IMG/VR virus record: IMGVR_UViG_3300006987_000044 | Span: 1-31,760 of that record | Source of the DNA: a virus | Length of the DNA stretch: 31,760 nucleotides | Reading direction: 5' to 3' (one strand) | Shown: piece by piece, positions 6,065 to 23,898 of the stretch | Layout: each line of letters opens with the position of its first letter | Numbering within the stretch: the first letter of the stretch is position 1 | Program-made: the position numbers and the translations under genes | The notes under the pieces: generated by a model | What the model was told of the DNA's origin: nothing | The model's input: only the letters and a program-made list of their open reading frames with translations | Database searches by the model: none

Positions 6065-8113
6065 TTACTCTACTATAGCTTTCAGCAGTGCATCCCGTGC
6101 ATCTTGATAGAACTGTATATCGATTTTCGTCGCCATATCATCTGACAAGTCATACAGCTGACGCCTAGCTGTAACCGGCATAAGTAGCACACTAGCACCC
6201 TTCTCTACTGCTAGCTCAGCAATATTGACCGCATTGGTTACAGGTTCAATAGAGCCACCCAGATTTATCTCTCCTATCAATATAAGACCGCCTTTTACTG
6301 ACTTCTTCAGTATACTACTACACATAGCAACTAACGCTGCCACACCAATCCTAGAGCCTTTTTTAGCTGCATCAAAAGCTCTCAGTTGTACTGTGAACTC
6401 ATGAGCTCTAGGGTCACGATCACCTATGAGCTGCATGGAGCGCGCGTAGAGATTCTGTTCAGCGTAACGCAAAGACTCCTTGAAAGCAGCAGGTGCTGGA
6501 TTATTAAGAATCTTCACTCCAGAACCTGGCCCCTCGTTTACCTCGATACGATACAAACCAGCATTATCATCAATCTCAGACCCACCTTCACTAATAGTCC
6601 AAACCTGTCCTGGTTCTAAGGGATCATCACCTATCTCGTTATTCGCTCGCAACTCTGCTGTGGCAACAAACTTTTCAATCCCATCATCACCGATGGTGTA
6701 ACTGAAATGGGTATTACGAAACTCAGCAGCACCAACGCGCTTCTGTTGCTCCTTCACCCGGCGGCGCACTTCAAGACCTAAACGAGTGGCCCATTCCAAG
6801 TCTTCATCAGATACGCTCAGTTCTGCATCTGGATACATTAACTTCAGTAATCCTGATACTGTTTTATTAACCGCATTGCTATCACGGCCACTGAGTGCAC
6901 CACCTAAATACACACGGTTCTGCATAGCAGATACACGACTTTGAAAGCGCAGGCGAGTCATGCATTCAGAAAAGAAGTCACTAACCAAACCAAAATGATC
7001 GGTGGTTAACTCTTTACTCATTTTTGGGACATCCCAGCCTGGGAGATAGCAATGGATACGATCCATCCATGCGGTATCATCACGCATTTCTGCAGGTAAA
7101 GGACCAAATAAGTGACCAACACGTTGTTGGTGCTCTACGTCCACGTCGAAGTTTCCTACGAATACCAATGAGCCATCTGCACGGATACTTTCTTTACCTC
7201 GGCTAAACTCACCTGACTCCATGTAGCCTTTCATGATATTGACGCCTTCTTTAGTATCGAAGGATATTCCGCTGACTTCATCAAAACAAACTACATCGTA
7301 CTGACACACTAAGCCACGCTGCCCACTAGCATTGTTCACAAACATCTTAGCAATTGTTGCTTTACCACCGGAAATCAGATGAGCATAAGGTGAAATCTGC
7401 TGAAACAGATGGCTCTTACCTGTGCCGCGCGGTCCCAACTCGACCATATTGTAGTTACGCTCAACGAACGGCACCATACGCAATAGGATGGCATCTTTAG
7501 CCCGTTGTGATAAGGCACTTGGTTCTAAGCCGATGGAGCGAATTAAGAAATCACGCCATTCATCACTCGTGTAGTTTTTGCGAGCTTCAGTCATCACATC
7601 TAGCACATTGCGCTTGGACATTTGAATGGGTCGTAGTTCAGCTATACCAAAAGCATTACCTTTTTCTTCTGCGATAATACTATCGTATTCTAGCGTTACC
7701 TCAGCATAAAACCCGCCTGTCAAAAGACGCTCATTGTCATCAACAATCTTGTCCGGAATACGTACTTTATTAAGGTTTAAACTAGGTAAGCTGGCAAGGT
7801 AACCATTCTCTTTTTCGACAAACTTAACACTAACGATATCAATAAGCTTGGCTGATCCGTCCTTATAGGCACGTGCCTTGAATAACTCCTCTTCTCCTGC
7901 ACGTACTGTTCGTGAAGACAGCTGGCGCTGGACAATCTCAAGACCCTCTTCTATTTCATCCGGGTCAGTTGATGCACAATAACGACCGAGCATAAACTCA
8001 ACTACATAAGTGGGTACGGGAAATTGACGAGCGAATGTACGGACAAGATCCTTACGAACGATGTATCCTTCAAAAAAATCCGCAGCCTTTTGATCCAGTA
8101 TATCTAATTCCAC
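6065..8113 (-). CDS. brxL: BrxL, BREX AAA+ protein with Lon-like C-terminal domain
   Basis: 682 residues. An N-terminal region with YIVRKDLVRTF and PVPTYVVEFMLGRYCA, typical of BrxL, is followed by an AAA+ module with Walker A GPRGTGKS (~227-234) and Walker B VVCFDEV (~274-280), then a Lon-protease-fold domain (~570-682). BrxL forms DNA-binding rings and is required for phage restriction in several type 1 BREX systems. By eye the Lon catalytic pair looks lost: Lon GPSAG reads GSRIG, and the Lys position in EINLGGSIEPVTNAV is Val. The start is GTG, directly after the pglZ TAA, with AGGAG eight bases upstream inside pglZ. Confidence 0.93.
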   Translation of the reverse strand: MELDILDQKAADFFEGYIVRKDLVRTFARQFPVPTYVVEFMLGRYCASTDPDEIEEGLEIVQRQLSSRTVRAGEEELFKARAYKDGSAKLIDIVSVKFVEKENGYLASLPSLNLNKVRIPDKIVDDNERLLTGGFYAEVTLEYDSIIAEEKGNAFGIAELRPIQMSKRNVLDVMTEARKNYTSDEWRDFLIRSIGLEPSALSQRAKDAILLRMVPFVERNYNMVELGPRGTGKSHLFQQISPYAHLISGGKATIAKMFVNNASGQRGLVCQYDVVCFDEVSGISFDTKEGVNIMKGYMESGEFSRGKESIRADGSLVFVGNFDVDVEHQQRVGHLFGPLPAEMRDDTAWMDRIHCYLPGWDVPKMSKELTTDHFGLVSDFFSECMTRLRFQSRVSAMQNRVYLGGALSGRDSNAVNKTVSGLLKLMYPDAELSVSDEDLEWATRLGLEVRRRVKEQQKRVGAAEFRNTHFSYTIGDDGIEKFVATAELRANNEIGDDPLEPGQVWTISEGGSEIDDNAGLYRIEVNEGPGSGVKILNNPAPAAFKESLRYAEQNLYARSMQLIGDRDPRAHEFTVQLRAFDAAKKGSRIGVAALVAMCSSILKKSVKGGLILIGEINLGGSIEPVTNAVNIAELAVEKGASVLLMPVTARRQLYDLSDDMATKIDIQFYQDARDALLKAIVE

Positions 8114-10438
8114 TTATATATCTCCTACTAATGTTGGTTTTTTTGCTAGCACATTGCCATGCTCGTCTAACAGCACAAGAACGGCGGAGGTATCTTCATA
8201 CTCATCATCTACCATGAGCGTGCATTTGCCTTCTTTAAGTGGTTTACGCTTACTAATCTCAGAGTCTGGGTTAGCCGCATGTATGCGTAGTACTGCAAAA
8301 ATCCCATCAGAGTCGCTATCAGCTTGCACTCTGCACTGTAATCCAAGCCAGCGCAACTCTGATAGGGTCGCTGTAATCGTTGATTTAGCGGCCGAGGCTG
8401 AGCTTTTTTTATTAAGAATCTCAATCACTGGTGTCAGGCACTCCTGTAAACTCAAGCCACCATGATCATAATACAAGCCAGCCTTGAAGCAAGAAACTCC
8501 TGGTGCCATAGCAATACTCACTTGGCTGTTCCAATACCAACCTACTTGCAAATAGCCACTGGCAACTGAATCTTTAATTACCGCGCATCGTCCCCAGCGA
8601 GTTTCTGTTAGATGTTTAGGTAGCTCTACCTTTGGCATAGTTTCAGGAGTCAACATCCACCCATGATCAGTTACTATTCTAATTTTGCGCCATCCTGCCG
8701 CCAGCAATTCTTCAATACGCTCAACTATTTCATCTAATAAACTATCAACTCTTCCTGCAAGCTTAAGACCTCGTACATGGCCTTCCTTATCTATGTCACC
8801 GCTTTGTACCCAGGCATTAGATGCCGGATCTCCTGAATCACCCTCTTCAAGATAGAGCCAGCCTTTCTCTTTCAGAAACTTTCTTAAGTAATAAGCAGAG
8901 AAGTCTTTATTGTCATCCAACAAGCTTGGCTCAAAATCACGGTCAGTTTCTCTACCGGTTAGACGCTCATGTACTGGCGTAACAGCAGCTTTAGCTGTTG
9001 CAGTAACAGAAGGTAGTGCCGCCCAATTAGTGGCAAACCCGACCTCTCCCAATGGCTCTAACTGTTCAATAAGACGCTGTGCCAAGTCATAACGTAGGCC
9101 ATCAACAAAAAACACTACTTCTCCCGCAGCAGCATAATCAGCTGTCGCTTTATTGAATTGAGTTGTACCGGGATAGCCTTTCTCTTTTACTAAACTTTGG
9201 AAGTTATGCGTAACCTCATCTAGCCAAGGCGTATAGATAAGCGCAAGCAATTTTTGTACTAAAGCTTGCTGGCTAGGCACTAAAGGATAAGCTAAAGCTT
9301 TAAGAGTTAGGTCATCCGCCTGCCAGTATTTATCACGGTATAACGTAGCCATCTCTTCAGGATCAGTGCCAGAAAACCCCTGCTGAGTGAGGCTTGCAAC
9401 ACCACTCAAATACTTCAGCACCCCAGCCAGCGGCGCCATATTTAATTTAAACCAAATCCATTCTCGTCGTTCGGCATGATGCTGTTCTAGTGCAGCTAAC
9501 TCTTGACGTATATCAACTGAGTTAAGTGTTTGTAGCTGAGATAATGATTTCTCCAGGGCAGCCTCTTCAGCTTGGTTTATAACTGGATAACTTGCACCAT
9601 CAGCAATAAGATCACCTTGCACCTTTAGCAATAGTTCTGGCAAAGAAGGATAGTGACGGCAGGATTCAACATAACGTTGCCACACTCCCTCCCAAACTCC
9701 CTGACGTTGGCACAACAGCTCAGCGGCTGTCAGTTCACCATCTTGCTCAGGATTAAAATGATATTCAGTTTCACAAATACCGACTAATGCTTGCCAGCGC
9801 GCTTCATCCCAGCGCTCACGGCAATTTTTTTCATCGTTCATCCAACTGAGTAAATCACGAACTGGATCACTGGACACTAGCTTATTAAAGTCTGAAGCCT
9901 CAAGACGACGATTCGCCAGATCTTCACGCTTGCTTTCAAGAATCTCATTTAGTACACGTAACATCGCCTGCTGGCTTTTATCATCCTTAGCGACATCAAG
10001 ACCAACACCACCGTTATCGGAGGTCAGAAAAGCATTTACGGTCCAATCACGACCAGAGTTATTATAAATCCACCAGCTACCACGGTATTGCAGTTCAGCT
10101 AGAGGCATCAGCGCTTCAGGACACGTAGCAATGGCTCGCAAGTCTCGGCGCTCAATGCCTGGCAAGTAAACGATAGGAGTACGATCAGTAGGAAGTTCGA
10201 TCTCTGAAAGAGCACCATCAACAACACATTTAATCCAAATAGCAGGACCTGTTTTTTGTTTAGGTGCATAATCACCCAGAACAATCAGCTCAGGCATAGC
10301 GGCTTGCAGTAACGGTAATGCTGACTCCCAATGGCGCTGCTTATCGATCCAAAGAATCACACTGGGAGCTACTTGAACATTCGAGTTGTAGTTAGCGCTG
10401 GCACGTACTTCTTTGGCCAGTAAATCAATAAGTTTCAT
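8114..10438 (-). CDS. pglZ: PglZ, BREX alkaline-phosphatase-fold protein
   Basis: 774 residues from the ATG at 10438. The PglZ domain shows metal-site motifs VVFFVDGLRYDLAQ (~440), ALPSVTATAKAA and RIVTDHGWML (~589), as in the alkaline phosphatase superfamily; a nuclease activity has been reported for a PglZ protein. PglZ is a core component in all BREX types. The frame could be extended to a TTG at 10459, but the ATG is better: AGGA lies five bases upstream, and the duplicated copy of this gene start at 13365 keeps both the ATG and an AAGGA at the same spacing. It abuts brxL and follows brxU by 39 nt. Confidence 0.93.
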   Translation of the reverse strand: MKLIDLLAKEVRASANYNSNVQVAPSVILWIDKQRHWESALPLLQAAMPELIVLGDYAPKQKTGPAIWIKCVVDGALSEIELPTDRTPIVYLPGIERRDLRAIATCPEALMPLAELQYRGSWWIYNNSGRDWTVNAFLTSDNGGVGLDVAKDDKSQQAMLRVLNEILESKREDLANRRLEASDFNKLVSSDPVRDLLSWMNDEKNCRERWDEARWQALVGICETEYHFNPEQDGELTAAELLCQRQGVWEGVWQRYVESCRHYPSLPELLLKVQGDLIADGASYPVINQAEEAALEKSLSQLQTLNSVDIRQELAALEQHHAERREWIWFKLNMAPLAGVLKYLSGVASLTQQGFSGTDPEEMATLYRDKYWQADDLTLKALAYPLVPSQQALVQKLLALIYTPWLDEVTHNFQSLVKEKGYPGTTQFNKATADYAAAGEVVFFVDGLRYDLAQRLIEQLEPLGEVGFATNWAALPSVTATAKAAVTPVHERLTGRETDRDFEPSLLDDNKDFSAYYLRKFLKEKGWLYLEEGDSGDPASNAWVQSGDIDKEGHVRGLKLAGRVDSLLDEIVERIEELLAAGWRKIRIVTDHGWMLTPETMPKVELPKHLTETRWGRCAVIKDSVASGYLQVGWYWNSQVSIAMAPGVSCFKAGLYYDHGGLSLQECLTPVIEILNKKSSASAAKSTITATLSELRWLGLQCRVQADSDSDGIFAVLRIHAANPDSEISKRKPLKEGKCTLMVDDEYEDTSAVLVLLDEHGNVLAKKPTLVGDI

Positions 10439-10473
10439 AATATTCCTATAAATGGACAAACAAGTATTGCTAT
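10335..10473 (-). repeat. Direct repeat copy A (start of pglZ)
   Basis: The first 104 nt of pglZ coding sequence (10335-10438) match 13262-13365 at 101 of 104 positions. Weaker similarity continues about 35 nt further upstream through the ribosome-binding site and TATTGCTA. Offset between the copies is 2927 nt, same orientation. The repeats flank the DUF932-like gene and brxU. Confidence 0.95.
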
Positions 10474-10477
10474 GAGC

Positions 10478-12280
10478 CTACTGAGCAGCTGTAGTCAATA
10501 TCGTCAGTGGATACTTCTCCATCACCTCAGCGACCAACCTGTTAGTCCGAACTTCAATCTGTTGCACAGACCAGCTGTCTTGTGTAATCAGCGACTCGTT
10601 TAAATACAGTCCGTTGTTATAGCCGACCTTACGTCCTTGGCTGTCCATTCGGTTTTTCTTATCTTCAAAACTTTTATTACCCAGCGTGCTGTTATAACCT
10701 GAGATAGTCAAATTCCCCAAGCAGTGCACATAAGACTGACGATACTCTTCAGCAAGCTCTGCATCGCCATTGGCAATCATCTTCACCCAACTGGTCGGTA
10801 TGTTATCGCCTTGGGGGAAAATATGTTCAATAGTCCAGACATACTGTTTGCCTTTAAGCGCCCATAGATTAACTTGAGTCTCACGAGTCATACGGCTCTC
10901 TTCTAGAGCACACAAAACAAAACGACAGACTGCTTTATTATCTTCGTAAATAGGCCCTTTGAGACTCTTCTCAAACTGCTCATCACTAGCGCTTTCGGTT
11001 TTGAGTCTAGTTTGAATATGCCTAACCACCTCATCACCTTCTAACATCATAATACTTTCAACCACATCCATAAAAATACGTGTGAGGTCTCGGGTTGGTG
11101 GTAAGTCAGTTGCGTTGCGACGAACGAAGTAGGAAATTAGGAATTCTACTGTTTGCTCTAAGTGAACTTCTTGCAGTTTCAGATCAGTCTTACACTCAAA
11201 TAGTACCATCAGTAGTAGATAAGCTGGTGTACCTTGAATACGATCTAATGAGAGTAATAGAGAAGACAGTTTAGACTGATCGGGCACAGCGCGATAACTC
11301 ACAATCTGCGCATAGTGCTCAGACATACGAATCATTGTCTGCAGAAAACCTTCAGCATCTCGGGCTATTAGCTTTTCATATATTTTGATCAGATTTGACT
11401 TGGTGGCCACTGGTACAGAGACTATCTGCTTTAAACTGGGTTTAAAAGCATTGTAGTATTGACGGAAAAACCGCTCTTGTACTGCATAATCATCACCTAA
11501 GGCATCAATAACTCTTTTCCAGCGATTATATTGCTTATCGATACTACCTTTATCTTGAGCTTCTAATACAGCCAGTAGTTTATTCTTGATAAGATCAATG
11601 GCGGTAAGTGGCACACCGCGGTTATTTAACGATTCAAATAGTGTGTAAGCATCAGAAGTGCTTGCTACCTCAATCTTCACCAAAGTTGCTGTATTTACTT
11701 TTTCAAGCAACCCTTGAAGCTTAGTAATCGGGTCATCACTGTGCTCAAGATATAGGTTAATGCGAGAAAGGAAGTGTCGGAACGCTTTAAACACTCGGCG
11801 GTTACCGGCATTTGCCACCGTTTCTATATCTTGAAGAACACCAATTTGACCCAGCACCGAAAAATAGTCTTGCTGATTATTATTTTGTACTTGAGGAATC
11901 AGACGTGGTTGATTCGGCATTTTCTTTAAGATCAGTTTATGCCTTAGATTATAGAGCTCCATCTGCTGATCCATAACTAGATTCGGCTGCTTACTAAAAA
12001 TATCATAAATTGCAGCTAATAAAATCGACACCGTCGTCATACGTTGTTGACCATCGACTAGCTCAAGCTCTTGCACTGCAAGGGCATCCTGAGATTGATT
12101 GATACAGATAATGGAGCCCAAAAAATAATGGAGTTCGTTATCTAATAAGTCATCGAGCAGTGCATCCCACTGTACACGACTCCAAGTGTATTCACGCTGG
12201 TAACGTGGAATGGCATAAACAACGCCGCTTTCAATATCGAGCAGGGTAGAAACTGGGTAGTTATAAACGGACTTAATCAT
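10478..12280 (-). CDS. brxU: BrxU-like GmrSD-family type IV restriction enzyme (DUF262 + DUF1524)
   Basis: 600 residues. N-terminal DUF262 (GmrS/ParB-like NTPase) shows IPRYQREYTW (24-33) and VDGQQRMTT (75-83). C-terminal DUF1524 (GmrD, His-Me-finger nuclease) shows TIEHIFPQGDN and LGNLTISGYNSTLGNKSF. Members cut DNA carrying modified bases such as (glucosyl-)hydroxymethylcytosine and so restrict phages that escape methylation-based systems. In the BREX island of an Escherichia fergusonii plasmid, BrxU likewise lies between pglX and pglZ, supporting this name. The start overlaps the stop of the DUF932-like gene as ATGA, so the two are coupled and travel as a pair. Confidence 0.85.
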   Translation of the reverse strand: MIKSVYNYPVSTLLDIESGVVYAIPRYQREYTWSRVQWDALLDDLLDNELHYFLGSIICINQSQDALAVQELELVDGQQRMTTVSILLAAIYDIFSKQPNLVMDQQMELYNLRHKLILKKMPNQPRLIPQVQNNNQQDYFSVLGQIGVLQDIETVANAGNRRVFKAFRHFLSRINLYLEHSDDPITKLQGLLEKVNTATLVKIEVASTSDAYTLFESLNNRGVPLTAIDLIKNKLLAVLEAQDKGSIDKQYNRWKRVIDALGDDYAVQERFFRQYYNAFKPSLKQIVSVPVATKSNLIKIYEKLIARDAEGFLQTMIRMSEHYAQIVSYRAVPDQSKLSSLLLSLDRIQGTPAYLLLMVLFECKTDLKLQEVHLEQTVEFLISYFVRRNATDLPPTRDLTRIFMDVVESIMMLEGDEVVRHIQTRLKTESASDEQFEKSLKGPIYEDNKAVCRFVLCALEESRMTRETQVNLWALKGKQYVWTIEHIFPQGDNIPTSWVKMIANGDAELAEEYRQSYVHCLGNLTISGYNSTLGNKSFEDKKNRMDSQGRKVGYNNGLYLNESLITQDSWSVQQIEVRTNRLVAEVMEKYPLTILTTAAQ

Positions 12281-13245
12281 AATTCAGTAATCATCTTAGA
12301 GGTTGTTATATAGTCGTTAAGGTATTTTTCAAAAGAAAACTCTCTGCTCTCTATTTGCTGTGAAAAATCATTGATCCAATCACCAGCTTTACGCTGATAC
12401 CCATCTATCCTATTTTCAGGAGACATTACTCCAACTGGCTGACTAGCATAATCCATCAGCACATTCAAAGCAGCATAGCCCTGCTCACCAAGAGCGGAAA
12501 AATAGTCATTAGTAAGCCGATCTATAGCGTTACGAAACAGAGTTAGCTCATTAATTTTGTTTGCGCTGACAGAACTCTTAGGATTTAGCTTAATACCAAA
12601 TACCTTGCATGCCAGTGGTAACATCCAACGCCTAGGAACGTGAAAACGTTCAAGATTTCTTAACTGATTAATGAACTCAATTTCAAGCTCTTTAATTTCT
12701 CCAAGATTCTCATGCCAGCGAAGCATAATGTCCTGTAATTGCTTAGTATGTGCAAAACTAATTTCTACACTCTTACTCTCAAAAATCACTTCATTGAAAT
12801 TGGTCAGACGACAGAAACCTATCTCAAAACGTAGTCTATGAGTTCGATTATAACTATTGGTAATACGGATAAAAGGTATCCATTGATCATCTTTCCATGG
12901 CTCAAAACCACTCTCTTTATGTATCAGGTCTATATGGCAAAAAGAGCATGTTTTAGGCATTATTATTTTTAAGCATGCCATATCCTTCAATGCCGTGAAA
13001 TCAAATACTGACTTAAGTGCCTCTGCTGCGAGCTCATATGCTTGCTGGTTAGTCACTAATTTATAATTCTCAGTCACTACCGCAAAAACATGGTCGCTTT
13101 CGCTCTCTACTACTGCAAAATGACGCGGCAATGCATGATAACCAAATAAGTCTCCACTCTGCTGAGATGATTGTATAAATACAGGTTTCAATTCGACAGG
13201 AAAAAACGCCACTGTTGGATCATAGTCAGGCCAATTACACTTCAT
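12277..13245 (-). CDS. DUF932-like protein of unknown function, inserted in BREX
   Basis: 322 residues, tentatively assigned to the DUF932/phage-plasmid-like family. FAVVTENYKLVTNQQAYELA resembles its first block, and IRITNSYNRTHRLRFEIGFC followed by RLTNFNEVIFE resembles its central nSxdgs...R.vC.N block. The C-terminal third is helical (MRW/MLP core, then FEKYLNDYITTSKM). No catalytic motif is evident. Known DUF932 members occur on phages and plasmids without a settled function. The ATG abuts the stop of the truncated pglZ leader (TAAATG), AGGGGG lies inside that leader, and the 3' end overlaps brxU. It is therefore tightly coupled to brxU and may be its partner or regulator; this is inference. 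Confidence 0.6.
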   Translation of the reverse strand: MKCNWPDYDPTVAFFPVELKPVFIQSSQQSGDLFGYHALPRHFAVVESESDHVFAVVTENYKLVTNQQAYELAAEALKSVFDFTALKDMACLKIIMPKTCSFCHIDLIHKESGFEPWKDDQWIPFIRITNSYNRTHRLRFEIGFCRLTNFNEVIFESKSVEISFAHTKQLQDIMLRWHENLGEIKELEIEFINQLRNLERFHVPRRWMLPLACKVFGIKLNPKSSVSANKINELTLFRNAIDRLTNDYFSALGEQGYAALNVLMDYASQPVGVMSPENRIDGYQRKAGDWINDFSQQIESREFSFEKYLNDYITTSKMITEL

Positions 13246-13365
13246 TTATTCAGCCCCCTGCCGCTGCTTATCGATCCAAAGAATCACACTGGGAGCTACT
13301 CGAACATTCGAGTTGTAGTTAGCGCTGGCACGTAATTCTTTGGCCAGTAAATCAATACGTTTCAT
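13246..13365 (-). pseudogene. Truncated pglZ copy: 39-codon leader ORF
   Basis: Starting at the ATG at 13365 (MKRIDLLAKELRASANYNSN...), this frame matches the first 35 codons of pglZ. It then diverges at 13262 into four new codons (QGAE) and a TAA at 13248-13246. The next base begins the ATG of the DUF932-like gene. It keeps an AAGGA five bases before the ATG, so it is likely translated. The three differences from pglZ all change an amino acid (Leu to Arg, Val to Leu, Gln to Arg), consistent with loss of constraint. It now looks like a leader peptide that couples translation into the inserted cassette. Confidence 0.85.
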
Positions 13366-13400
13366 AATGTTCCTTGCGGACAGATAGGAATATTGCTAAT
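13262..13400 (-). repeat. Direct repeat copy B (pglZ 5' fragment)
   Basis: Second copy of the pglZ start region, 101/104 identical to 10335-10438 over 13262-13365. A further ~35 nt upstream is recognisably related, with a 3-nt gap. The right-hand part adjoins the spacer downstream of the TrlF-like gene, which is where pglZ would have begun before the cassette arrived. Confidence 0.93.
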
Positions 13401-13509
13401 AAAAAATGCAAAACTACCGAATACAAGTGTTACAGCTTTAAACTTCAACTTGTATATTCGACAAATAGGCGATGAATAAACTCACACTCTTATGTTTATC
13501 TCTTTTGCT

Positions 13510-16323
13510 TTAGAATCCATACTTTTCACGCCTACTAGTAAACGCTTTTTCACTGCCTTCCATAATATCTAGAACAGCCTCAGTCACATCTTGGCGATCT
13601 AAACCACCTTGCGCTTGGCAAACTCCTTTACCATCTTTTGCTTCGAAGGCATAAAGTAAGTCTGCATCACCATTAACTGGTAAGTTGGCATTATGTGTAG
13701 CAAATATGAGCTGCCGCTTCATTTTCATGCGACGAATCATTGGGATAAGCTCGTTAAAAACAAAGTTTGAATCCAGCTCATCTTCAGGCTGGTCAATGAT
13801 TAATGGCCCTCCATCTTGCGCCAAAAGTAAAGCTAGGACGGCGGTATTTCTTTGCCCATCTGATAAGGTGTTGGCCGATATTTTACCTGCCGCAGACCCG
13901 TCTGAACGGTAAAGCGTGATATCAATTGAATCAGGAACTCTACGAGTTATTAATTTATTCCACTTACTAGAATTTGAATCAATATAGCTTTTCACCTCTG
14001 TTAGCTCTTCATTTGATTCAAGCTCTTGGTAAAGAGCAGTCCAAATACTACTACTTAGGTTCGAGGTTGCTCTTTCTAAACACTCTTTGATTAAGTCACA
14101 CCAATCCCTAGCCAACTTTGCTCGCTTGTCTTTTGGTCCAAACTCTTCCCAAGCCTGCAAGAAATACTGCTTGTCCCCTTGGTATATCAACTCTACTGTC
14201 ACAAAAGACTTATTACTTCCCTCATAAACAGCTAGCTTGTTAGCTTTGTCTGCAGCCTGCTTTCTGAGGTCAAACTGCTGAGCCCAAATAGCCTCTAAGT
14301 CTTGCTTTAATACATCAAGCTCCTGAAGTTCATTATCATATTCCTTATTTTTTGTTTCGAGCCGAATAACCTCTTTATTTTTTTGCGACTTCTGAGCTGA
14401 TAACGATGTTAGCTCTTTTATATCTTCTGGCTGGATACCTTTTGATGCGCAAGCTTTTTGAAATGTACCGTCTGCTTTATCAAGCTGATCTTGAATTGAC
14501 ACCCACTGCTCACTTTCCACAAAAAAACTATCAAGCTCTGATCTATGTTGTTCAACTAGCCTTAAAATATTGTCTTTTAATACTTGGTTAGCATTTTTAA
14601 CTTTCTGATCAACGTTCTTAAGCCATGCAGTATTAGGGGTATCATCATGAACAAAACCACTAAAACTCACATCAAACTCTAAAGCTTTAACTTTCAGATG
14701 ATCAATATCGTTATTAACTAAACTAACCACAGAATCGATATAGGTCTGCTCTTTTTTAAGCGAACTATGAGTCTCAGCATCAGCCTGGACGTCCTGTCTT
14801 GCTTGCCACTGTTGCGTTAAGCCATCAATTTCCTGCTTCAGCTTGGTGAGTTTTTCTGAGTTATCATCATGTAGTGTTTTTAGACTTTGCTTGTGCCTGA
14901 TCTGACCTAACAAATCCTCTTCTTTTTCATCTAACTCTTTCAGCTCATCAGCAACGAAGCCGTCTACTAACTCTAGCAGCAACTCTGTACTTTTTAACTG
15001 CCCATTCTCATCTGCCTCAGTAATTTTATTCAATTGCTGCTGACTAAAAAACTGAGCAGGCAAACCTTTTAATAATATAGCCTGGTCTTGTGCATCGTGA
15101 CTTATAACTGACGTTCCCGCAGACGTAAGCTCAAGTGTATAATCCACACCGTGCTTTTGACGGTATTCGACTGTCGCTTTAAAGTCTGGGTTTTGAGTAG
15201 TTTTTTTAACTCGCTCTGCTTTGCTACCTTGCTCTTTATTTTCCTTACCCAAGGAGAGACGTAAATACTCAAGCACTGTTGACTTGCCACTACCACGCCC
15301 ACCAATTAGAGAGTTTTTACTTGGTGAAAAGTGAATTTCTTGGTTATCTAAAAACTCAGCCCCTTCGATTTTAATGGATTTGATATAAGGGTAATTACTT
15401 AAAACTGATGGGTTTCTGTCGGTTGTGACGTCTTCAGGTAACTTAATGCGAGAAGTAGGATCTAAAAATGCTTGCCGTAATGACTCAATAGAGGGTTTGG
15501 ACATTTTAATCCAGGTGTGCCTATAGCCAAGACTGTTAGGCTTTGGTTTCCCACAGCTTTCTGTCTTTAGAGATTTTGCATCTGATGACATTATGTAAGC
15601 GGGATAAAACCCTTCTCTTTTCCAGTTAGTATTTCTCCCCTCTAAGATATCTAAATATTTTGGCGCTGGTGGGTTCTTAGTCACTTCAACACAATATAAT
15701 TGAGGATTCTTGAAATCCTCCTTGTTTTTGGCATCTACGAGCATTCCATCATCACTATCTGAATGAGCAGCTATTACGATTCCACACATTTCATTTTGAA
15801 CAAGTTCAATAAGCTCATTTAAGCTCACATAACTATTATTACGCCTTAATGGGCATGCAGCGTTACCATCAAACCTTTGTTCTACTGAAAGGCCAAGTTT
15901 AGTTAGGTTTTCATTACACTTAGAAAGTGCTTTTGAGTTTGAAACTGGTGGGAACAAACATAAAACATGGTAACCTATATCTACTTCGAATCCCGGGAAG
16001 ATAATAATAGGGTCTCGGCTCAACTCTTTTGCAACTTTTTTATTTTGTTCTACAAGGTGGGTTATAAACCAATCATCAGAATCCGATCTTCGTGAGAAAT
16101 TATGGTCTGTTATACCAATTGCATCAAGCTCTAAGTCATGACAACGCCTTAAGAACGTTTTTGCTTTTTTTTGAATACCTTCTTTGCACGGCAATCCTTT
16201 GTTTTTTGGTCTACGTGGCTCTCCTAAACGAAGATCGTCATCAATCCAGTGTGCATTATCCTCTGGTGTTTGCACTTGAAAATCACACTTGAGCCAGCGC
16301 ATACCTTGGTAGTTTTCACTCAT
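13510..16323 (-). CDS. TrlF-like PHP-domain plus SMC/ABC-type ATPase
   Basis: About 937 residues from the ATG at 16323, which overlaps the pglX stop as TAATG; a TTG six bases upstream is less likely. Residues ~1-300 form a PHP-type phosphoesterase region (DAIGITDHNFSRRSD, later GIVIAAHSDSDDG). Walker A IGGRGSGKST is at ~340, a coiled coil runs from ~430 to 720, then the ABC signature LSDGQRN (~818), Walker B LIIDQPEDELD (~842) and the H-loop THNAN (~877). The layout matches the TrlF family of AAA-like ATPases, found in defence loci and thought to couple DNA sensing to hydrolysis. Base composition is more AT-rich than the neighbouring BREX core. Its substrate is unknown. Confidence 0.82.
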   Translation of the reverse strand: MSENYQGMRWLKCDFQVQTPEDNAHWIDDDLRLGEPRRPKNKGLPCKEGIQKKAKTFLRRCHDLELDAIGITDHNFSRRSDSDDWFITHLVEQNKKVAKELSRDPIIIFPGFEVDIGYHVLCLFPPVSNSKALSKCNENLTKLGLSVEQRFDGNAACPLRRNNSYVSLNELIELVQNEMCGIVIAAHSDSDDGMLVDAKNKEDFKNPQLYCVEVTKNPPAPKYLDILEGRNTNWKREGFYPAYIMSSDAKSLKTESCGKPKPNSLGYRHTWIKMSKPSIESLRQAFLDPTSRIKLPEDVTTDRNPSVLSNYPYIKSIKIEGAEFLDNQEIHFSPSKNSLIGGRGSGKSTVLEYLRLSLGKENKEQGSKAERVKKTTQNPDFKATVEYRQKHGVDYTLELTSAGTSVISHDAQDQAILLKGLPAQFFSQQQLNKITEADENGQLKSTELLLELVDGFVADELKELDEKEEDLLGQIRHKQSLKTLHDDNSEKLTKLKQEIDGLTQQWQARQDVQADAETHSSLKKEQTYIDSVVSLVNNDIDHLKVKALEFDVSFSGFVHDDTPNTAWLKNVDQKVKNANQVLKDNILRLVEQHRSELDSFFVESEQWVSIQDQLDKADGTFQKACASKGIQPEDIKELTSLSAQKSQKNKEVIRLETKNKEYDNELQELDVLKQDLEAIWAQQFDLRKQAADKANKLAVYEGSNKSFVTVELIYQGDKQYFLQAWEEFGPKDKRAKLARDWCDLIKECLERATSNLSSSIWTALYQELESNEELTEVKSYIDSNSSKWNKLITRRVPDSIDITLYRSDGSAAGKISANTLSDGQRNTAVLALLLAQDGGPLIIDQPEDELDSNFVFNELIPMIRRMKMKRQLIFATHNANLPVNGDADLLYAFEAKDGKGVCQAQGGLDRQDVTEAVLDIMEGSEKAFTSRREKYGF

Positions 16324-19300
16324 TACCAATTCTCCCTCGCCGCGTGCTTGTCAGCCAATGTCAGATGATGGTCGTTAATTCGATCACCTTCCTTACCTTC
16401 ATGCTCTAAACCTAAGGTATACCAAGGTGCAGACTCGACATCTTTACCACGGTCTTTGGTCCATTTTACGTTAGGCTTCCAGCGCAACACGCCAGCATCC
16501 TTTTTACCAACATCACGAGCATTTAAGAATGGGCGAATATTTAGGCGTACACCATCATTAAGATCAGGATTCCAGCCGATAGGTTGCTCTTCTAGTGACT
16601 TCCAGCGTACAAAGATATCATAAGGTGCTTCGCCTTCAAGGATAGCTTCAAGCTCGCGCTTAAGTGCTTCAGCTGCTGCGAGTCGTTCTTGTGCACCGTC
16701 CTCACCGCCCGCCATCCCACTTTGCTGAGTACGTATCCAGTCACCTAGATAAGTGTAGATAAGACGCTCAAGGCCAGCTTTGTTCAACATATGATAGTTA
16801 ACTAAAGCACTAAAGCCATCATTTAGACCATCCCAGATGTGCCAGATAAAGGGACGATGCTGAAACATCTTACAGTGCTGCTCAAAGAACTTATCACGTA
16901 GCCATTGGTTGAGAGACTTGCCACCTACTGTTTCCAATAAACGGTTTTTTAAGGGTGTGGTCCAAGCTTCGCCATATGCTGCTTGGAGTAAAGCTTCTAG
17001 GCGCTGATCTGCTGCCTTTTCACCACGCACTGCTGGCAAGCAAACGATACCGTCGTCGTCAGTAAACTGGTTCAACTCTTTGCTGCGCTCAACCCACTGT
17101 CTTTGTTCAGCAGATAATTCCATTTCAGTATCAAGCTCAGCTGGCCATCGATAACCTAGCAACCGGGAGACAGCAACCTGCAGTACGTTATCATCAACTC
17201 GTAGTTCACCATTTACTGTCCACTTGGTTTCTTCATTCCAAACCACTGAGCCACAGGGGTGACCATGGAATGTCCACTGGGTAGGGTCGTTTGTATATGG
17301 CTCAGGCAAACTATTAGGATAAAGGCTATCTGATTTGACACTCCATTTATCAAAATCGAAAGGGACATTAACTAGGTAAGACATTGGTACTTCTGGTTTT
17401 GAATACAATTTTCTTACAGCTGGAACAAACTCTTCACTAGTACAGAAAGTGTACAGTGCCATAAAGTAATCTTCGCTATGTGGTGACACTACTCCAATAT
17501 CAACTGAAAACTTATCGCCCGAATATAAAGCTGTATGTAGACTCCCCATTCGGTTAACAGCAATTCCTTTCTTACCCCAATACGGCTTACCTCTTCTCCA
17601 GCTTTGAACAGAGTGATTTAAGTGCTTTAAACTATCTGCAAGTCTAGCTAAACGTCCTTTTTCATTTTCCCATAGAATAACGGAACACCGTCCACCTATT
17701 AACTGGGTAGAAGTAGATGTTTCATGTAAGTACTCCCACCCACTTCCCCTAAGAGAAGCAAACTCCCAAAAAAATCTTTCAAAAAGATTTTTTTCTCCAG
17801 TAGAAAGCCCTTGGAGAGAGTCCGCATAATCACCAATTGTTTCTCCTTTAGTTGATAAAGAACTTATTTCTTTTTTCTTACTATTGGAAATTTTGTATTG
17901 GGATGCTTGAACTAAAGCCACATCTTTAATTATTAGTGATTTATTTTCACATCCTTTTATCATTGAAGCATCACTAAAACTTATGAAGTTTTCATGATTG
18001 TTTATATCCACTTGCATAACCAACAACATTACTTGAGCACCAATCGGGGTTGTAAATGCATCATTACCTAAAGTGCACACAAGCTTTATATTATAATTAC
18101 TTAAAACCTCTTTTCTAAAATTCAAATCATTACTTTGAAATAACCAGCCTTGTGGTAAGACCAAGCTTGACACCCCTTTTTCACTCAATAAACTACGAAT
18201 CCTAGATGTAAAAACCAACGCAAGATCTGACTTAGACTGCTCGTAATTCTTTTGAATGTAGTCTTTCATAATGTCTGAATATTTTTTCTGGCCCAAGTAT
18301 GGAACATTCGTCACTACCCAAGTATATTGACCACCTAATAGTTCAGCCGCTTTTACTAAGCCTTGAGCCACAATGCCAGCTTCTATTTGGTTTTTTTGAG
18401 CATTGCTATCAGAGTCATCAGCTTGATTCTGGTCTTTTGCTAACGCCTCGCCTAGCAATTTCTGCAACTCATCCCATTTAGCAATCTTTGCAGCATCACT
18501 ACGGCGCGGGTTAATCAAACTACCTAACACTGGCGCATCCTGAAAGGTTTGATACATCCAGTCCAGAGCAATGCTTAGATTCTGCTTGCCAGCATTACGG
18601 CTTAGCGCTTTCCATTCGTCTCTGGCAGCGGTAATAGACAATCCGCTACAGGCTAAATTCAATTCTGGCAGCTGGCGATATCCACCACCATTCTTATATC
18701 GCCAGGCTTCTAATGCTAGGGCAAAGACTGCCAGCTCCACACAGCGTTGGTCTAACTCCAACCCATGTAAGTTTTCACTTAGCACCTTATCAATGGCTTG
18801 TTGTTCGCTTATATTCTCGAGCTGCATACGCATTGGAACAAGCATGAGGAATATAGCCACTAAGAAGTGACCTGAGCCACAGCATGGATCTATTGCTTTA
18901 AACTCACTAAGATTATCGGGCCAGGCATCAAAGGTGCCTGAGGCTGGTTTCCACTGTTTGGACGTTTCATCTTGGACAAAACGCAGATATTCAAGTGATA
19001 CTCCATCAATAGCCGCTTTGTCACGTAGCTCTTGTTCACTTTTAGCATTTTGCCAATCACTTTCAGTCAGTCGCTTGCCAGCCCACCACGCTCCCAACGC
19101 ATTGTCTAATAGAAAGCTGACCATGTAAGGTTCAGTAAATAGCTGAGTTACAGGAGATAGCTCATCAGCGCCTATCTTCACTTCAGACTTATTAACTTCA
19201 TCTTTGCGCTTGCTTTGCCAGAACTGATATACCCAGCCGAGGCTATCTTGCGCTTGGAATGTTTCTAAAGATAACCCAGTGACGAGTTGCTCTAAACTAC

Positions 19301-19817
19301 GTTGATGTTCAGGAGCAAACTCCAACTCAAACACTGGCGAGTCGATACGGAAAACCTGCGGCAACATATTTGATGCCAATACGCCTGCCAGCTCCCAACC
19401 ACTTTCACAACGTCGTTCTAAATCATCTCGAGCCATATCAGCGTCTTGAGCTAGCTCATTACATTCATCCAAGCTTAATGAAGTGTACTCGTCATACATG
19501 AGTAGATTGTTCTGTTCAAGAAACCGAGCGAACAACATACGATGCCAGTGCTCATAAGCTACTTCGGTGACCAGCCTATGAGTATCTTGTCGACCGTTAT
19601 CATTTTTAATATCGCCTAATTGACGACCACGTGCACGTAAACGAGTACGTAATCTACGCTGCTCATCATTTAAATAGTCAGCAGGTTTAGCATCACCTAC
19701 ACCCAGACGATTAATTGCTTGATTTGCCGCTAGCTCAGCAATATCGCGAGCTTTAATCACTGTCGCCTCTAATGTGCGACGCAAAGGCTTATCAAGAGGT
19801 TGTCGAGTTGTCATCAT
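16323..19817 (-). CDS. pglX: PglX, BREX adenine-N6 DNA methyltransferase
   Basis: 1164 residues. The methyltransferase core carries the SAM-binding motif FKAIDPCCGSGHFL (~307-318) and catalytic motif NVPY (504-507, N-x-P-Y type), giving N6-adenine methylation of a non-palindromic site that marks host DNA as self. Residues ~506-826, just after NVPY, should contain the target-recognition region. The corresponding DNA (about 17340-18300) is far more AT-rich than the flanks: 17/60 G+C at 17821-17880 against 32/60 at 16621-16680, counted by hand. The C-terminus (~850-1164) is conserved in style. The start overlaps the brxC stop as TAATG. Confidence 0.95.
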   Translation of the reverse strand: MMTTRQPLDKPLRRTLEATVIKARDIAELAANQAINRLGVGDAKPADYLNDEQRRLRTRLRARGRQLGDIKNDNGRQDTHRLVTEVAYEHWHRMLFARFLEQNNLLMYDEYTSLSLDECNELAQDADMARDDLERRCESGWELAGVLASNMLPQVFRIDSPVFELEFAPEHQRSLEQLVTGLSLETFQAQDSLGWVYQFWQSKRKDEVNKSEVKIGADELSPVTQLFTEPYMVSFLLDNALGAWWAGKRLTESDWQNAKSEQELRDKAAIDGVSLEYLRFVQDETSKQWKPASGTFDAWPDNLSEFKAIDPCCGSGHFLVAIFLMLVPMRMQLENISEQQAIDKVLSENLHGLELDQRCVELAVFALALEAWRYKNGGGYRQLPELNLACSGLSITAARDEWKALSRNAGKQNLSIALDWMYQTFQDAPVLGSLINPRRSDAAKIAKWDELQKLLGEALAKDQNQADDSDSNAQKNQIEAGIVAQGLVKAAELLGGQYTWVVTNVPYLGQKKYSDIMKDYIQKNYEQSKSDLALVFTSRIRSLLSEKGVSSLVLPQGWLFQSNDLNFRKEVLSNYNIKLVCTLGNDAFTTPIGAQVMLLVMQVDINNHENFISFSDASMIKGCENKSLIIKDVALVQASQYKISNSKKKEISSLSTKGETIGDYADSLQGLSTGEKNLFERFFWEFASLRGSGWEYLHETSTSTQLIGGRCSVILWENEKGRLARLADSLKHLNHSVQSWRRGKPYWGKKGIAVNRMGSLHTALYSGDKFSVDIGVVSPHSEDYFMALYTFCTSEEFVPAVRKLYSKPEVPMSYLVNVPFDFDKWSVKSDSLYPNSLPEPYTNDPTQWTFHGHPCGSVVWNEETKWTVNGELRVDDNVLQVAVSRLLGYRWPAELDTEMELSAEQRQWVERSKELNQFTDDDGIVCLPAVRGEKAADQRLEALLQAAYGEAWTTPLKNRLLETVGGKSLNQWLRDKFFEQHCKMFQHRPFIWHIWDGLNDGFSALVNYHMLNKAGLERLIYTYLGDWIRTQQSGMAGGEDGAQERLAAAEALKRELEAILEGEAPYDIFVRWKSLEEQPIGWNPDLNDGVRLNIRPFLNARDVGKKDAGVLRWKPNVKWTKDRGKDVESAPWYTLGLEHEGKEGDRINDHHLTLADKHAARENW

Positions 19818-22800
19818 TAGAAAGTCACCGGTCCATCACTAAGTTTATCAAGAATTTGAGTTTTAACTTCTGCTAGCCAGGTATTGACGTCTTCCTCTGT
19901 CTCAAAAGTCGCTCGTTGCAGAGCAATATACTGTACTTTAGGCTGCAATCTTCGTAACGCCTCCATACGTGCATTATCAAACTTGCTGGCTAGAGCATCT
20001 GTACGGTCTCTCCATTGCTCGAGACTAACCTCATTCAGTGCCTCGATAATGGCATCAGCATTATTTAGAGCAGGCTCATTAAACGTCGTTAGCTTGAACT
20101 TATTAAGAATCTCATTTTTCTGAGTATCATCTAGTTGCTGCCAATAGCTATCAGCTTCCAACTGAGCCAAATACTTGGTATGCTGTTCGAGGTAACTATC
20201 CACACGATATTGTACGGCTTCACGTAACTTATCAACCAACTGCTTACTAAGGCTAGTAATTGGATTTGGCTCGTCGAGTAACGAGCGATTGGCTTCGATG
20301 GCACTTACTTCGGCTTGGATATCAGCTTGGAATGACAGACCCTGACTCTGGTCTAATAAATCTTTTAACACAAACCAATCAGGTCGTCTCTTTTGAATTT
20401 TATCAGCAGTCTCAGCCCATTGTTGAAGTGACTGCTTGATGGCATCTTGTTCATCTAGAACATATTTAAGCTTGGCATTACCAGATTGCTGCGCAATCTC
20501 ATCAAACAAACGGTAACTTGGGCGCTCAGGAAAAGGAGCATCGCCACCTGCTTCTTTTGCCAATGTACGACCTTTATCTATTAGCAAATCTAGTTTAGCC
20601 GCTTCCTCACCAGGCTGGCACGCAATGCCGCTAGCATTCATTAAACCACGTATTTTAATCATATCTACTGGGCGAATAGTGATACTTTCTGGTTGAAAAT
20701 TAGTTTGGCTGATTTGTTTACGTTCTAACTCTTTTACAGAGATGGGATGGTTGCCATTACCTTTAGCAATGAGAATACCACTAGCCAATAATGCATATAG
20801 AGCGCCGTCGATAGTATCTTGCGGCCAACCATAAGGAGCGGCAGAAAAATAATCTCGAATCTCACTACCCTTTTTAGATACACCTATATAGCGTTTGATC
20901 TGTGCGCAAACCGGATGCTGTTCAGGCTCATCAGAGTAACCCACAGCTTCTAATGCATTCTGCCCGCCATCTTTGCGAGCTCGATCATAGACCTTGCCCC
21001 ATCCCGTATTATCCGCGACATCAAACTCACGATACAGACGAACCAATGAGGCTTTAGCAGCAGTCTCAACACGCTCTGCAATACTACTACCTTCAACTTC
21101 ACTACCACCAGCTTGTAACACTTGCACGCCAGCAAAGATCTCACTTAATAGAGCTTTGACTTGCTTTTGTGCGTCACGGTGGCGGGTTTCCATGGCACTA
21201 CGAGCATCCGTACCAGCGTCAGTATTAGGAATACCACGCTTCTCTAGTGTCGCAAATGCGGCATTCTCTGTAATGATTGCATTGGTTAATTCAGAGCGGT
21301 TACGCGCAGGAATATAAACAAAGATTGTAGGCTCGCCAGGCTGACGACGACGGGCTTCAGATATAAAGCTTTTTTCATCGAGGCTCCAACCGTCCTGTAT
21401 CCACACATAGATTTTTTCACTGGCATCACTTGGCAGCTCTAAATCGAAACTAACAATCAGCTGGCGCATCTCATTAGACTTACCTTGAGTCAAACGAATC
21501 TTGCTAATATCCTGGCGAATAGATTTATGCAGCAAGTCCACGCGTATATTTTCAACGCGTTGCATGTTGCCACGCAGATCTGCTTCCTCCTGGCGTAGAG
21601 TGTCATACCACTGAGCACTTTCTTGAGTTTGTAGTCGATACTCAGATCCTACGCTAGTCTCCATAACCATCAGTAGGCCTTCTTCAGTCAACTCGTTTAG
21701 TAACTGAGGCACAGCCGTACGGATCGCATCCTTGCCGTTATTAAAGTCTTCTATCAGTAAATCCGCAAGCATATCAGCGGTGGCTCTTACACCACAATCA
21801 GCTGCTGGATCAGTAGGCAGTTTCCCAATCAACAAGACCAAAGCGAGTATACGAGACTTGAGCTTGTCATCAGCATCACCCGCAGAAAACCGACCAATGG
21901 TTTCTGTGATTTCCTTAGAGATTACACCTGTCTGTAAAAGGTTTACTGAGATTTGATCATAGATAAAATCAGCTGGCACGACATGACCTAGTGGCTTGTC
22001 TGCTGTAGCCTGAGCTGCTTCGTGAATGACTTTGAGCTGATTGCGTAGCTGAGAAACTGTACCTGTTGTATCTACGATACGTAAGACCTTTTCCCAAAAA
22101 CGCCGGCGTACCGGCAATAATGGATAATCAGCCAACAGAACTTTCTCATCTTCACGGTGATGTTCAATTTTCGTACCTCGTAATTGCCGAGATATTTCTC
22201 CTAGATGAGATTGCAGCATAGACTCTAGCTGGGGTTTAACCGAGGCTTTCTTCTGTAAGATGACTTTGCGGATAACGGACTCCACATCAGTATCAGATAA
22301 CTGTACAGGGATCTGGAAGCGACCAAGCAAACGTTGTAAGTTTGCCATTCCCGACAATGCGCTTTGACCAGTGGCAACAAACAGCAATTTACTTTTAAAT
22401 TTAGAATGTTTGCAGCACGTCTCAACCATTTCTTGAACTTGATGCGCTTTTTCAGCATCAGTGCCAATATATTGTTGTACCTCATCTAATACAATCAGAG
22501 TTAGTGGAAAGCTACCATCCGATGCCAGAGCATCATAAATTGCATCTACCATCTGTTGGTTAGTAATATCTGAGGCAATGGGATACTGTTCACGAAGAAG
22601 CTGACGCACCTCTTTGAAGTCTTCACCCAGCGTATTGTCTTCTTCAAGCAATGCTCCTGCGATACTACGAGAGACATAAAGATCTTCTAATTCGTCTTCC
22701 CAGCAATCTCCTTCATCTTCAACACGTGCTTTAATGCTTTCAAAAATGCCTTTCTTCTTGAGCCACATCACAAAACGAGCCTGATGATATTGTTCTGGGA

Positions 22801-23284
22801 GCCCGGCAGATTTGAATATGATATTTAGTAGCGCCATGCGCACATTATTATTTGCACCTGAGCCAAGAGTGCCGGATGCAGCGTGAAGACCTCCATATCG
22901 ATTAGCCACACTACTTAGCTCTTTGAAGTGATCTGTAATTTCTAATGGGAGATCAGCAATATCTAGCGCGCTCATACCATCACTGAATTTTTGGTTAATC
23001 CAAAAAGCCCTAAGCATTTTTGCCAGATGTGATTTACCGGAACCAAAAAAACCAGATATCCAAACTCCTGGCTGCTCATGATCGCTGTTTAAATTTCTCA
23101 GATATGCAGACAATATTTTATCTAGTCCAGCTTCATACTCACCATCACAGACAAATGTCTCAATCTCATAACGTAATGTTTTAAGAGCTTGATCAGACTG
23201 GTCATCCTTTACTTCCGCAACACCATTGTTTTCTAATCGGTTCAGCGTAGGATCTAACTGATAAATTTCACGGTTCAACATCAT
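19817..23284 (-). CDS. brxC: BrxC, BREX P-loop ATPase
   Basis: 1155 residues from the ATG at 23284. Walker A is VWISGFFGSGKSHLAK near the N-terminus (~78-89) and Walker B is LTLIVLDEVQQYIG (~260). It is the large ORC/Cdc6-type ATPase found in every BREX system and is needed for defence. An ATG twelve bases upstream (23296, MEFAMMLN...) is in frame, but its GGAG sits exactly where a ribosome-binding site for the inner ATG would be, six bases away, and no site precedes the outer one. The gene follows brxB by roughly 55-70 nt. Confidence 0.94.
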   Translation of the reverse strand: MMLNREIYQLDPTLNRLENNGVAEVKDDQSDQALKTLRYEIETFVCDGEYEAGLDKILSAYLRNLNSDHEQPGVWISGFFGSGKSHLAKMLRAFWINQKFSDGMSALDIADLPLEITDHFKELSSVANRYGGLHAASGTLGSGANNNVRMALLNIIFKSAGLPEQYHQARFVMWLKKKGIFESIKARVEDEGDCWEDELEDLYVSRSIAGALLEEDNTLGEDFKEVRQLLREQYPIASDITNQQMVDAIYDALASDGSFPLTLIVLDEVQQYIGTDAEKAHQVQEMVETCCKHSKFKSKLLFVATGQSALSGMANLQRLLGRFQIPVQLSDTDVESVIRKVILQKKASVKPQLESMLQSHLGEISRQLRGTKIEHHREDEKVLLADYPLLPVRRRFWEKVLRIVDTTGTVSQLRNQLKVIHEAAQATADKPLGHVVPADFIYDQISVNLLQTGVISKEITETIGRFSAGDADDKLKSRILALVLLIGKLPTDPAADCGVRATADMLADLLIEDFNNGKDAIRTAVPQLLNELTEEGLLMVMETSVGSEYRLQTQESAQWYDTLRQEEADLRGNMQRVENIRVDLLHKSIRQDISKIRLTQGKSNEMRQLIVSFDLELPSDASEKIYVWIQDGWSLDEKSFISEARRRQPGEPTIFVYIPARNRSELTNAIITENAAFATLEKRGIPNTDAGTDARSAMETRHRDAQKQVKALLSEIFAGVQVLQAGGSEVEGSSIAERVETAAKASLVRLYREFDVADNTGWGKVYDRARKDGGQNALEAVGYSDEPEQHPVCAQIKRYIGVSKKGSEIRDYFSAAPYGWPQDTIDGALYALLASGILIAKGNGNHPISVKELERKQISQTNFQPESITIRPVDMIKIRGLMNASGIACQPGEEAAKLDLLIDKGRTLAKEAGGDAPFPERPSYRLFDEIAQQSGNAKLKYVLDEQDAIKQSLQQWAETADKIQKRRPDWFVLKDLLDQSQGLSFQADIQAEVSAIEANRSLLDEPNPITSLSKQLVDKLREAVQYRVDSYLEQHTKYLAQLEADSYWQQLDDTQKNEILNKFKLTTFNEPALNNADAIIEALNEVSLEQWRDRTDALASKFDNARMEALRRLQPKVQYIALQRATFETEEDVNTWLAEVKTQILDKLSDGPVTF

Positions 23285-23352
23285 TGCAAACTCCATTACG
23301 CAAATTGCGCTAATCTAAATGAGATAGGTATAATTATTAGTATGTGTTTATA

Positions 23353-23898
23353 TTAGTTTTCTGCTGTAATTGCTGTAGCCTGATAACCCCAACCATCACG
23401 AGCATCTAGCAAGCGATAAGTGTTATCAACATACTCTCCCGGAAAAAGTACCAATAAACGGCCAGGTACATGGAGAGCTAACTGCTTTACAAAATCAGAT
23501 ACTGAAGCAAGACCAAATAATGTCCCACACCCTACTAGTGCAACTAAAGTGTTCTCATCGGCTTCATCTTGGATACGTTCTGCTAACAACTCTACAGACT
23601 GTCGAACAAATACCTTGTATTTAGATTTTAGAAACTCTGGGTCTTCAAAATAGTCTTCACGGTATTTTTGTTCTGCCATCCATTCAGGAAACATGCGCGT
23701 AATATCCAACTTTAACCATGTATGTCCTGCATTTTCGGTTGCCAAACGAAACTCTTCTGTACGCGCTCGCAGCTTCAGCTCATCCTCTTTGTGGTAGACG
23801 GCAAACAGTACACGCTGCTCATCTGCAAGACCCTTCATCCAGGGAATACTAATATAGCTAGAATAGCTTTGAATTAAGCGGTTCAGTCGATTACTCAT
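23353..23898 (-). CDS. brxB: BrxB, DUF1788 BREX protein
   Basis: 181 residues matching the DUF1788/BrxB family: IPWMKGLADEQRVLFAVYHK, LKLDITRMFPEWMA, LVALVGCGTLFGLASVSDFV and RLLVLFPGEYVDNTYRLLDA near the end. BrxB is a small core component with no known catalytic activity, possibly a bridge between PglZ and other subunits. The start lies within brxA (8-nt overlap), with AGGAG about ten bases upstream, so the two are coupled. Confidence 0.93.
   Translation of the reverse strand: MSNRLNRLIQSYSSYISIPWMKGLADEQRVLFAVYHKEDELKLRARTEEFRLATENAGHTWLKLDITRMFPEWMAEQKYREDYFEDPEFLKSKYKVFVRQSVELLAERIQDEADENTLVALVGCGTLFGLASVSDFVKQLALHVPGRLLVLFPGEYVDNTYRLLDARDGWGYQATAITAEN

What the first reader, a model, noticed from the sequence alone, without database searches (positions are those of the whole stretch)
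10335..13400. Accessory cassette in BREX flanked by a duplicated pglZ start: insertion scar and possible excision substrate
The first 104 nt of pglZ (10335-10438) recur at 13262-13365 with 101/104 identity, plus a related ribosome-binding region, as direct repeats 2927 nt apart. Between them lie exactly two coupled genes, DUF932-like and brxU. The simplest history is an ancestral order pglX-trlF-pglZ into which a cassette carrying a pglZ 5' end recombined. Recombination between the repeats would delete both genes and restore an intact pglZ behind trlF. This would be a modular way for BREX to gain or lose a type IV nuclease. The repeat geometry is seen directly; the mechanism is inference.
Basis: partly seen in the sequence, partly recalled or inferred. 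Interest (0 to 1): 0.8.

Follow-up and report, generated by a model that had tools for sequence, protein, structure and literature searches.

The report
BREX accessory-gene recombination scar
A copied fragment of the pglZ gene inside a bacterial anti-phage (BREX) gene cluster is the fossil joint left when two versions of the cluster, carrying different extra defence genes between pglX and pglZ, recombined; such gene swapping at this spot is common, but the preserved joint is unusually readable.

Summary
The repeat is real: 104 nt of the pglZ start (10335-10438) recur at 13262-13365 with 3 mismatches, 2927 nt apart, around a DUF932-family gene and a GmrSD-family gene. The deletion arithmetic also holds: losing 2927 bp restores an intact 774-codon pglZ behind trlF. 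The sequence joining the remnant to the DUF932 gene is a relic of a pglX 3' end (15/19 nt identical to a relative at the same place). Pseudomonas veronii and two Marinobacterium-family loci have pglX directly followed by the DUF932 gene, without trlF and without a remnant. So the joint fuses pglX-trlF-pglZ5' to [pglX tail]-DUF932-gmrSD-pglZ, a recombinant of two cargo sets. Psychrobacter sp. Ps6 carries the same scar inside a recently exchanged trlF-scar-DUF932 block (dS about 0.1-0.2 against 0.4-0.7 elsewhere). No other surveyed locus has a pglZ remnant, so a repeat-flanked mobile cassette is not supported. The pglX-pglZ interval is a broad accessory slot (57 bp to 9.9 kb), in line with published BREX variation. 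Interesting as a mechanism trace, otherwise ordinary.

The parts
13262..13365 (-). Duplicated pglZ 5' end (codons 1-34 plus 2 nt), the remnant
   Evidence: 101/104 identical to 10335-10438; all 5 substitutions private to remnants are nonsynonymous
13246..13264 (-). Relic of a pglX 3' tail (GCGGCAGGGGGCTGAATAA) fused to the remnant and abutting the DUF932 start codon
   Evidence: 15/19 identical to the 19 nt before the DUF932 gene in L066 (end of pglX), best of 560 ATG-anchored 19-mers; 13/19 in L059 (best of 546); 12/19 in P. veronii (4 of 927 as good)
13262..13272 (-). Junction zone GATAAGCAGCG: matches pglZ exactly and resembles pglX tails (GAGAAGCAGGCG, GACAAGCACGCG), a likely microhomology breakpoint
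13249..13365 (-). 39-codon leader ORF (MKRIDLL...QRQGAE) with an RBS-like AAGGAAC; stop TAA (13246-13248) directly before the DUF932 ATG
   Evidence: same frame and junction in Ps6
12277..13245 (-). DUF932-family protein, 322 aa
   Evidence: PF06067, 5 of 5 relatives
10478..12280 (-). GmrSD-family (DUF262/DUF1524) nuclease, 600 aa
8114..10438 (-). pglZ (BREX-1 PglZ type B), complete, 774 aa
13510..16329 (-). TrlF-family AAA-like ATPase, 939 aa; probable newcomer that brought the pglZ 5' copy
   Evidence: NF045780 E 4.5e-143, above cut-off
16323..19817 (-). pglX methyltransferase
13366..13509 (-). trlF-to-remnant intergenic, a divergent version of the pglZ upstream region
   Evidence: close to the Ps6 counterpart, only loosely like the real pglZ upstream; no promoter-like match on the gene strand
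6065..8113 (-). brxL
19817..24670 (-). brxC, brxB, brxA core genes

Best explanation
The repeat is a recombination joint between two cargo versions of one type 1 BREX locus. Version B was pglX-DUF932-gmrSD-pglZ, still seen in Pseudomonas veronii. Version A was pglX-trlF-pglZ. DNA of version A entered a version B locus: one end recombined by homology in pglX, and the other end joined illegitimately, about 104 nt into pglZ, to the last codons of the resident pglX through a short GAtAAGCAGCG-like microhomology. This is the pattern of homology-facilitated illegitimate recombination (HFIR). The result is pglX-trlF-[pglZ 5']-[pglX tail]-DUF932-gmrSD-pglZ. The remnant no longer makes PglZ; at most it is a translated 39-codon leader that replaces the former pglX stop/start junction in front of the DUF932 gene. 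The scarred block was later exchanged between this lineage and that of Psychrobacter sp. Ps6 by ordinary homologous recombination. Shown: the repeat, the pglX-tail relic, the scar-free relatives, the shared scar and its low dS. Inferred: which version was the recipient, the HFIR mechanism and the leader role.
For: Scar-free P. veronii locus, with pglX stop and DUF932 start 4 nt apart, then gmrSD and pglZ. DUF932 directly behind pglX also in L059/L005 and L066. pglX-tail relic at the joint. No trlF in the clade (pglZ about 74% identical or more) outside the window and Ps6; none elsewhere in 105 Psychrobacter genomes at E 1e-40. DUF932/gmrSD diverge between window and Ps6 about as much as the core genes (dS about 0.5 and 0.69, against pglX about 0.7, brxA/B 0.63-0.72, pglZ 0.44), so they are old residents, while trlF aa 242-939, the remnant and DUF932 aa 1-80 have dS about 0.1-0.2 (one window 0.37), 0 and 0.13. 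HFIR is documented in Acinetobacter baylyi, Pseudomonas stutzeri and Streptococcus pneumoniae (PMC3240628).
Against: No close version A donor (trlF directly before a 75%+ pglZ) was found; only distant Polaromonas shows that adjacency. The remnant and the window's own pglZ have no synonymous difference while Ps6 pglZ has 7 synonymous codon differences from the window's, which fits a copy of the resident pglZ (rivals 1 and 2) at least as well as a donor allele. The first 240 residues of trlF are saturated in dS between window and Ps6, so trlF has a mosaic history. The relic is only 19 nt long.
Confidence: 0.58

Rival explanations
1. One reading: the window's lineage was pglX-trlF-pglZ and a fragment [pglX tail-DUF932-gmrSD] from a B-type locus was inserted, joining illegitimately at pglZ codon 35 on one side and homologously at the pglZ start on the other, thereby duplicating the resident pglZ 5' end.
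For: Produces the same joint; explains directly why remnant and resident pglZ have zero synonymous differences while their upstream regions differ.
Against: Needs trlF as the older resident, but trlF is absent from all other close relatives while DUF932 behind pglX is widespread; DUF932/gmrSD diverge like the core genes.
Confidence: 0.25
2. Two-step: a tandem duplication in a B-type locus with breakpoints in pglZ codon 35 and the pglX tail (microhomology), then replacement of the first DUF932-gmrSD copy by trlF through homologous recombination.
For: Explains the pglZ5'/pglX-tail joint and the allele identity.
Against: Two events and an unseen intermediate.
Confidence: 0.1
3. Selected regulatory duplication: the remnant is kept because its ribosome-binding site and 39-codon leader couple translation into the DUF932-gmrSD pair.
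For: RBS, start, frame and TAA directly before ATG are kept in both window and Ps6.
Against: All 4 codon differences between the two remnants are nonsynonymous, so the peptide is not conserved; the block was exchanged recently, so conservation is weak evidence; no promoter-like match.
Confidence: 0.05
4. An actively excising or mobile two-gene cassette flanked by 104-nt repeats.
For: Repeats are 97% identical and the deletion product would be intact.
Against: No recombinase in the interval; no pglZ remnant in about 20 other loci; the two genes occur separately; no deletion form found.
Confidence: 0.02

Closest known systems
StySA BREX of Salmonella Typhimurium LT2 compared with E. coli HS (PMC9009780)
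   Same: Two accessory genes (ATPase, DUF4435) form an indel exactly between pglX and pglZ, proposed as a later acquisition; the region before pglZ is altered too
   Different: Different genes; no duplicated pglZ start is mentioned in the passages read
BrxU / GmrSD with BREX on pEFER (PMC8565348)
   Same: A GmrSD-family type IV nuclease gene inside a type 1 BREX locus
   Different: Here the gene lies between pglX and pglZ and is only a family-level relative; BrxU is not among its PDB matches
Auxiliary and backup nucleases of BREX (PMC12839542)
   Same: GmrSD, OLD-ABC plus HNH and Schlafen modules recur inside BREX loci; several seen in our survey
   Different: In the section read, the paper catalogues content, not recombination joints
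Homology-facilitated illegitimate recombination (PMC3240628 and references therein)
   Same: Homology at one end, illegitimate joining at the other, foreign DNA trapped
   Different: Inferred here from one fossil joint, not shown experimentally

Membership tests
Type 1 BREX | brxA, brxB, brxC, pglX, pglZ, brxL in order | tested here: met
   PADLOC hits for all six
Type 1 BREX | PglZ of type 1 | tested here: met
   NF033450 BREX-1 PglZ type B, 924.7 bits, cut-off 400
BREX pglX-pglZ accessory slot | Variable, non-homologous content at the same place in relatives | tested here: met
   Interval 57 bp to 9.9 kb with GmrSD, DUF932, PtuAB, HEC-01, TrlF, Schlafen/AlbA and Hsp70-like genes
Repeat-flanked mobile cassette | Same repeats or pglZ fragments flank homologous cassettes elsewhere | tested here: not met
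   Only Ps6, which shares the event; about 20 other loci have none
Repeat-flanked mobile cassette | Deletion (excised) form observed | not testable with these tools
   No reads or population data
HFIR product | One homologous and one illegitimate (microhomology) junction | tested here: inconclusive
   Illegitimate junction seen; the homologous side cannot be located without the donor
TrlF family ATPase | NCBIfam NF045780 above curated cut-off | tested here: met
   479.1 bits, cut-off 350
BrxU | GmrSD_N plus GmrSD_C domains | tested here: met
BrxU | Close relation to BrxU of pEFER | tested here: inconclusive
   Not among PDB sequence matches; no direct comparison made
DUF932 | PF06067 match | tested here: met
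   5 of 5 relatives, best E 2.3e-10; the window protein alone 0.043

The most novel reading that the evidence does not exclude
The conserved pglX 3' and pglZ 5' ends act as general recombination anchors by which BREX loci swap nuclease cargo, and in this lineage the 104-nt duplication makes loss of the DUF932-gmrSD pair a population-level switch with pglX-trlF-pglZ as the alternative state.
Probability: 0.1. Interest if true: 0.6.

Novelty: new member of a known kind. Interest (0 to 1): 0.36.

Why it matters
How defence loci acquire extra nucleases without breaking a long operon is mostly inferred from gene content. A readable joint (pglZ codon 35 fused to a pglX tail) gives a concrete mechanism and predicts a specific donor arrangement and a specific deletion product, both testable. 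It also warns against reading a direct repeat as proof of a mobile cassette.

Tried and rejected
Near-identity DNA searches of plasmids, phages and E. coli genomes: no match. Viral-contig scans with pglZ, the DUF932 protein, TrlF and a degenerate pglZ-start pattern: nothing. Searches of 299 Moraxellaceae (pglZ) and 105 Psychrobacter genomes (pglZ, TrlF, DUF932) for an A-type donor: only Ps6. Gene conversion of pglZ by the remnant: window/Ps6 differences in pglZ polarise 95 window-derived to 98 Ps6-derived outside the first 104 nt and 2:5 inside it (Fisher p 0.45), so conversion is neither needed nor excluded. AlphaFold model of the DUF932 protein: mean pLDDT 38, not used. Active excision: no recombinase in the interval and no deletion form. 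Promoter in the scar: none on the gene strand.

Full report
Observation. The direct repeat exists as described: 10335-10438 and 13262-13365, 101/104 identical, 2927 nt apart. It is the only long repeat in the region. Between the copies are a DUF932-family gene and a GmrSD-family gene. Around them lies a complete type 1 BREX locus with PglZ type B, and trlF (NF045780) sits between pglX and the remnant. Deleting 2927 bp in silico restores an intact 774-codon pglZ behind trlF.

What the remnant is joined to. Reading on from the remnant, the sequence leaves pglZ at GATAAGCAGCG and continues GCAGGGGGCTGAATAA into the ATG of the DUF932 gene. In relatives where the DUF932 gene directly follows pglX, the same place holds the end of pglX: GAGAAGCAAGCGGCAAGGAGCTGAACAG in L066, GAGAAGCAGGCGGCAAGGAGCTGAGCCT in L059, GAAAAGCGCAAAGCGAGGGACTGAATAT in P. 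veronii. The last 19 nt match L066 at 15/19, the best of 560 ATG-anchored 19-mers in that locus; L059 gives 13/19, best of 546; P. veronii 12/19, with 4 of 927 as good. The joint is a pglZ-5'-to-pglX-tail fusion, as expected when a pglX-trlF-pglZ locus and a pglX-DUF932-gmrSD-pglZ locus recombine.

Relatives. Pseudomonas veronii plasmid LT599585 has pglX-DUF932-gmrSD-pglZ-brxL with no trlF and no remnant. L059 (Marinobacterium weihaiense) and L066 have DUF932 behind pglX followed by other cargo; L067 has gmrSD behind pglX followed by cargo with the same gene lengths as in L066. Psychrobacter sp. Ps6 has the same scar at the nucleotide level. More distant type 1 loci have an empty 57-58 bp interval (L044, L045, L048), GmrSD alone (L051, L053, L056), TrlF-like plus other genes (L047, L049, L050), PtuAB (L062), HEC-01 (L054) and more, up to 9.9 kb. 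Polaromonas has trlF directly before pglZ, but its trlF is only 33% identical. None of about 20 other loci has a pglZ 5' duplication. The interval is thus a general accessory slot, consistent with the published StySA indel between pglX and pglZ (PMC9009780) and the catalogue of auxiliary BREX nucleases (PMC12839542).

Timing. Between window and Ps6, dS is 0.63-0.72 for brxA/brxB, about 0.7 over much of pglX outside the swapped specificity region, about 0.5 for DUF932 beyond residue 80, 0.69 for gmrSD and 0.44 for pglZ, but about 0.1-0.2 for most of trlF from residue 242, 0 for the remnant and 0.13 for DUF932 residues 1-80. The scar therefore most likely arose once and travelled in an exchanged block. 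The remnants share the synonymous states of the window's pglZ (0 synonymous differences) and not of Ps6 pglZ (6-7), so the scar was probably made from a window-like pglZ allele. Substitutions private to the remnants are all nonsynonymous (5 of 5), as expected for a fragment no longer under selection as PglZ.

Polarity. Parsimony over the clade and the dS pattern make DUF932-gmrSD old residents and trlF the newcomer (my estimate 0.58). The allele identity of remnant and resident pglZ would fit the reverse polarity or a tandem duplication equally well or better (0.25 and 0.1). A donor with trlF directly before a close pglZ would decide it; none was found in the collections available.

Function now. 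The remnant carries an RBS-like AAGGAAC, an ATG and a 39-codon frame ending directly before the DUF932 ATG. It may act as a leader that replaces the former pglX stop/start junction; this is inference, and the peptide itself is not conserved.

Verdict.

Noticed in passing
window 31378-31432: 3' part of a tRNA-Met gene at the right end, an attachment-site-like fragment. In Psychrobacter Ps6 the BREX locus also lies between an intact tRNA-Met (L081:19132-19208) and a copy of its 3' end region (L080:1219-1279), so both BREX loci seem to sit on elements integrated at the same tRNA, while the flanking genes tested are not shared.
   Followed up: partly
window 17327-18250: The middle of pglX drops to about 47-57% identity with Ps6 while its flanks are 80-89%: a specificity-region swap.
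   Followed up: partly
window 15580-16326: The first 240 residues of trlF are at or near saturation in dS against Ps6 while the rest is nearly identical: a mosaic TrlF with an exchanged N-terminal part.
   Followed up: partly
window 25918-31103: Phage-type genes (DnaB helicase, primosomal protein, CI-like repressor, endonuclease) next to brxA on an IMG/VR virus record: BREX carried on a putative prophage-like element.
   Followed up: no
L066:9194-14004 and L067:4813-10317: Two related loci whose first gene after pglX differs (DUF932 against GmrSD) while the following genes have the same lengths (367/237/446 aa): a natural single-gene cargo swap.
   Followed up: no
L063:13600-15938 and L049:8936-12306: Polaromonas pglZ and the L049 pglX are found in several frames, suggesting broken BREX genes or sequencing errors.
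   Followed up: no
window 19817-22850: brxC from residue 151 on has dS about 0.13-0.34 against Ps6, lower than brxA, brxB and pglX: another recently exchanged block.
   Followed up: no
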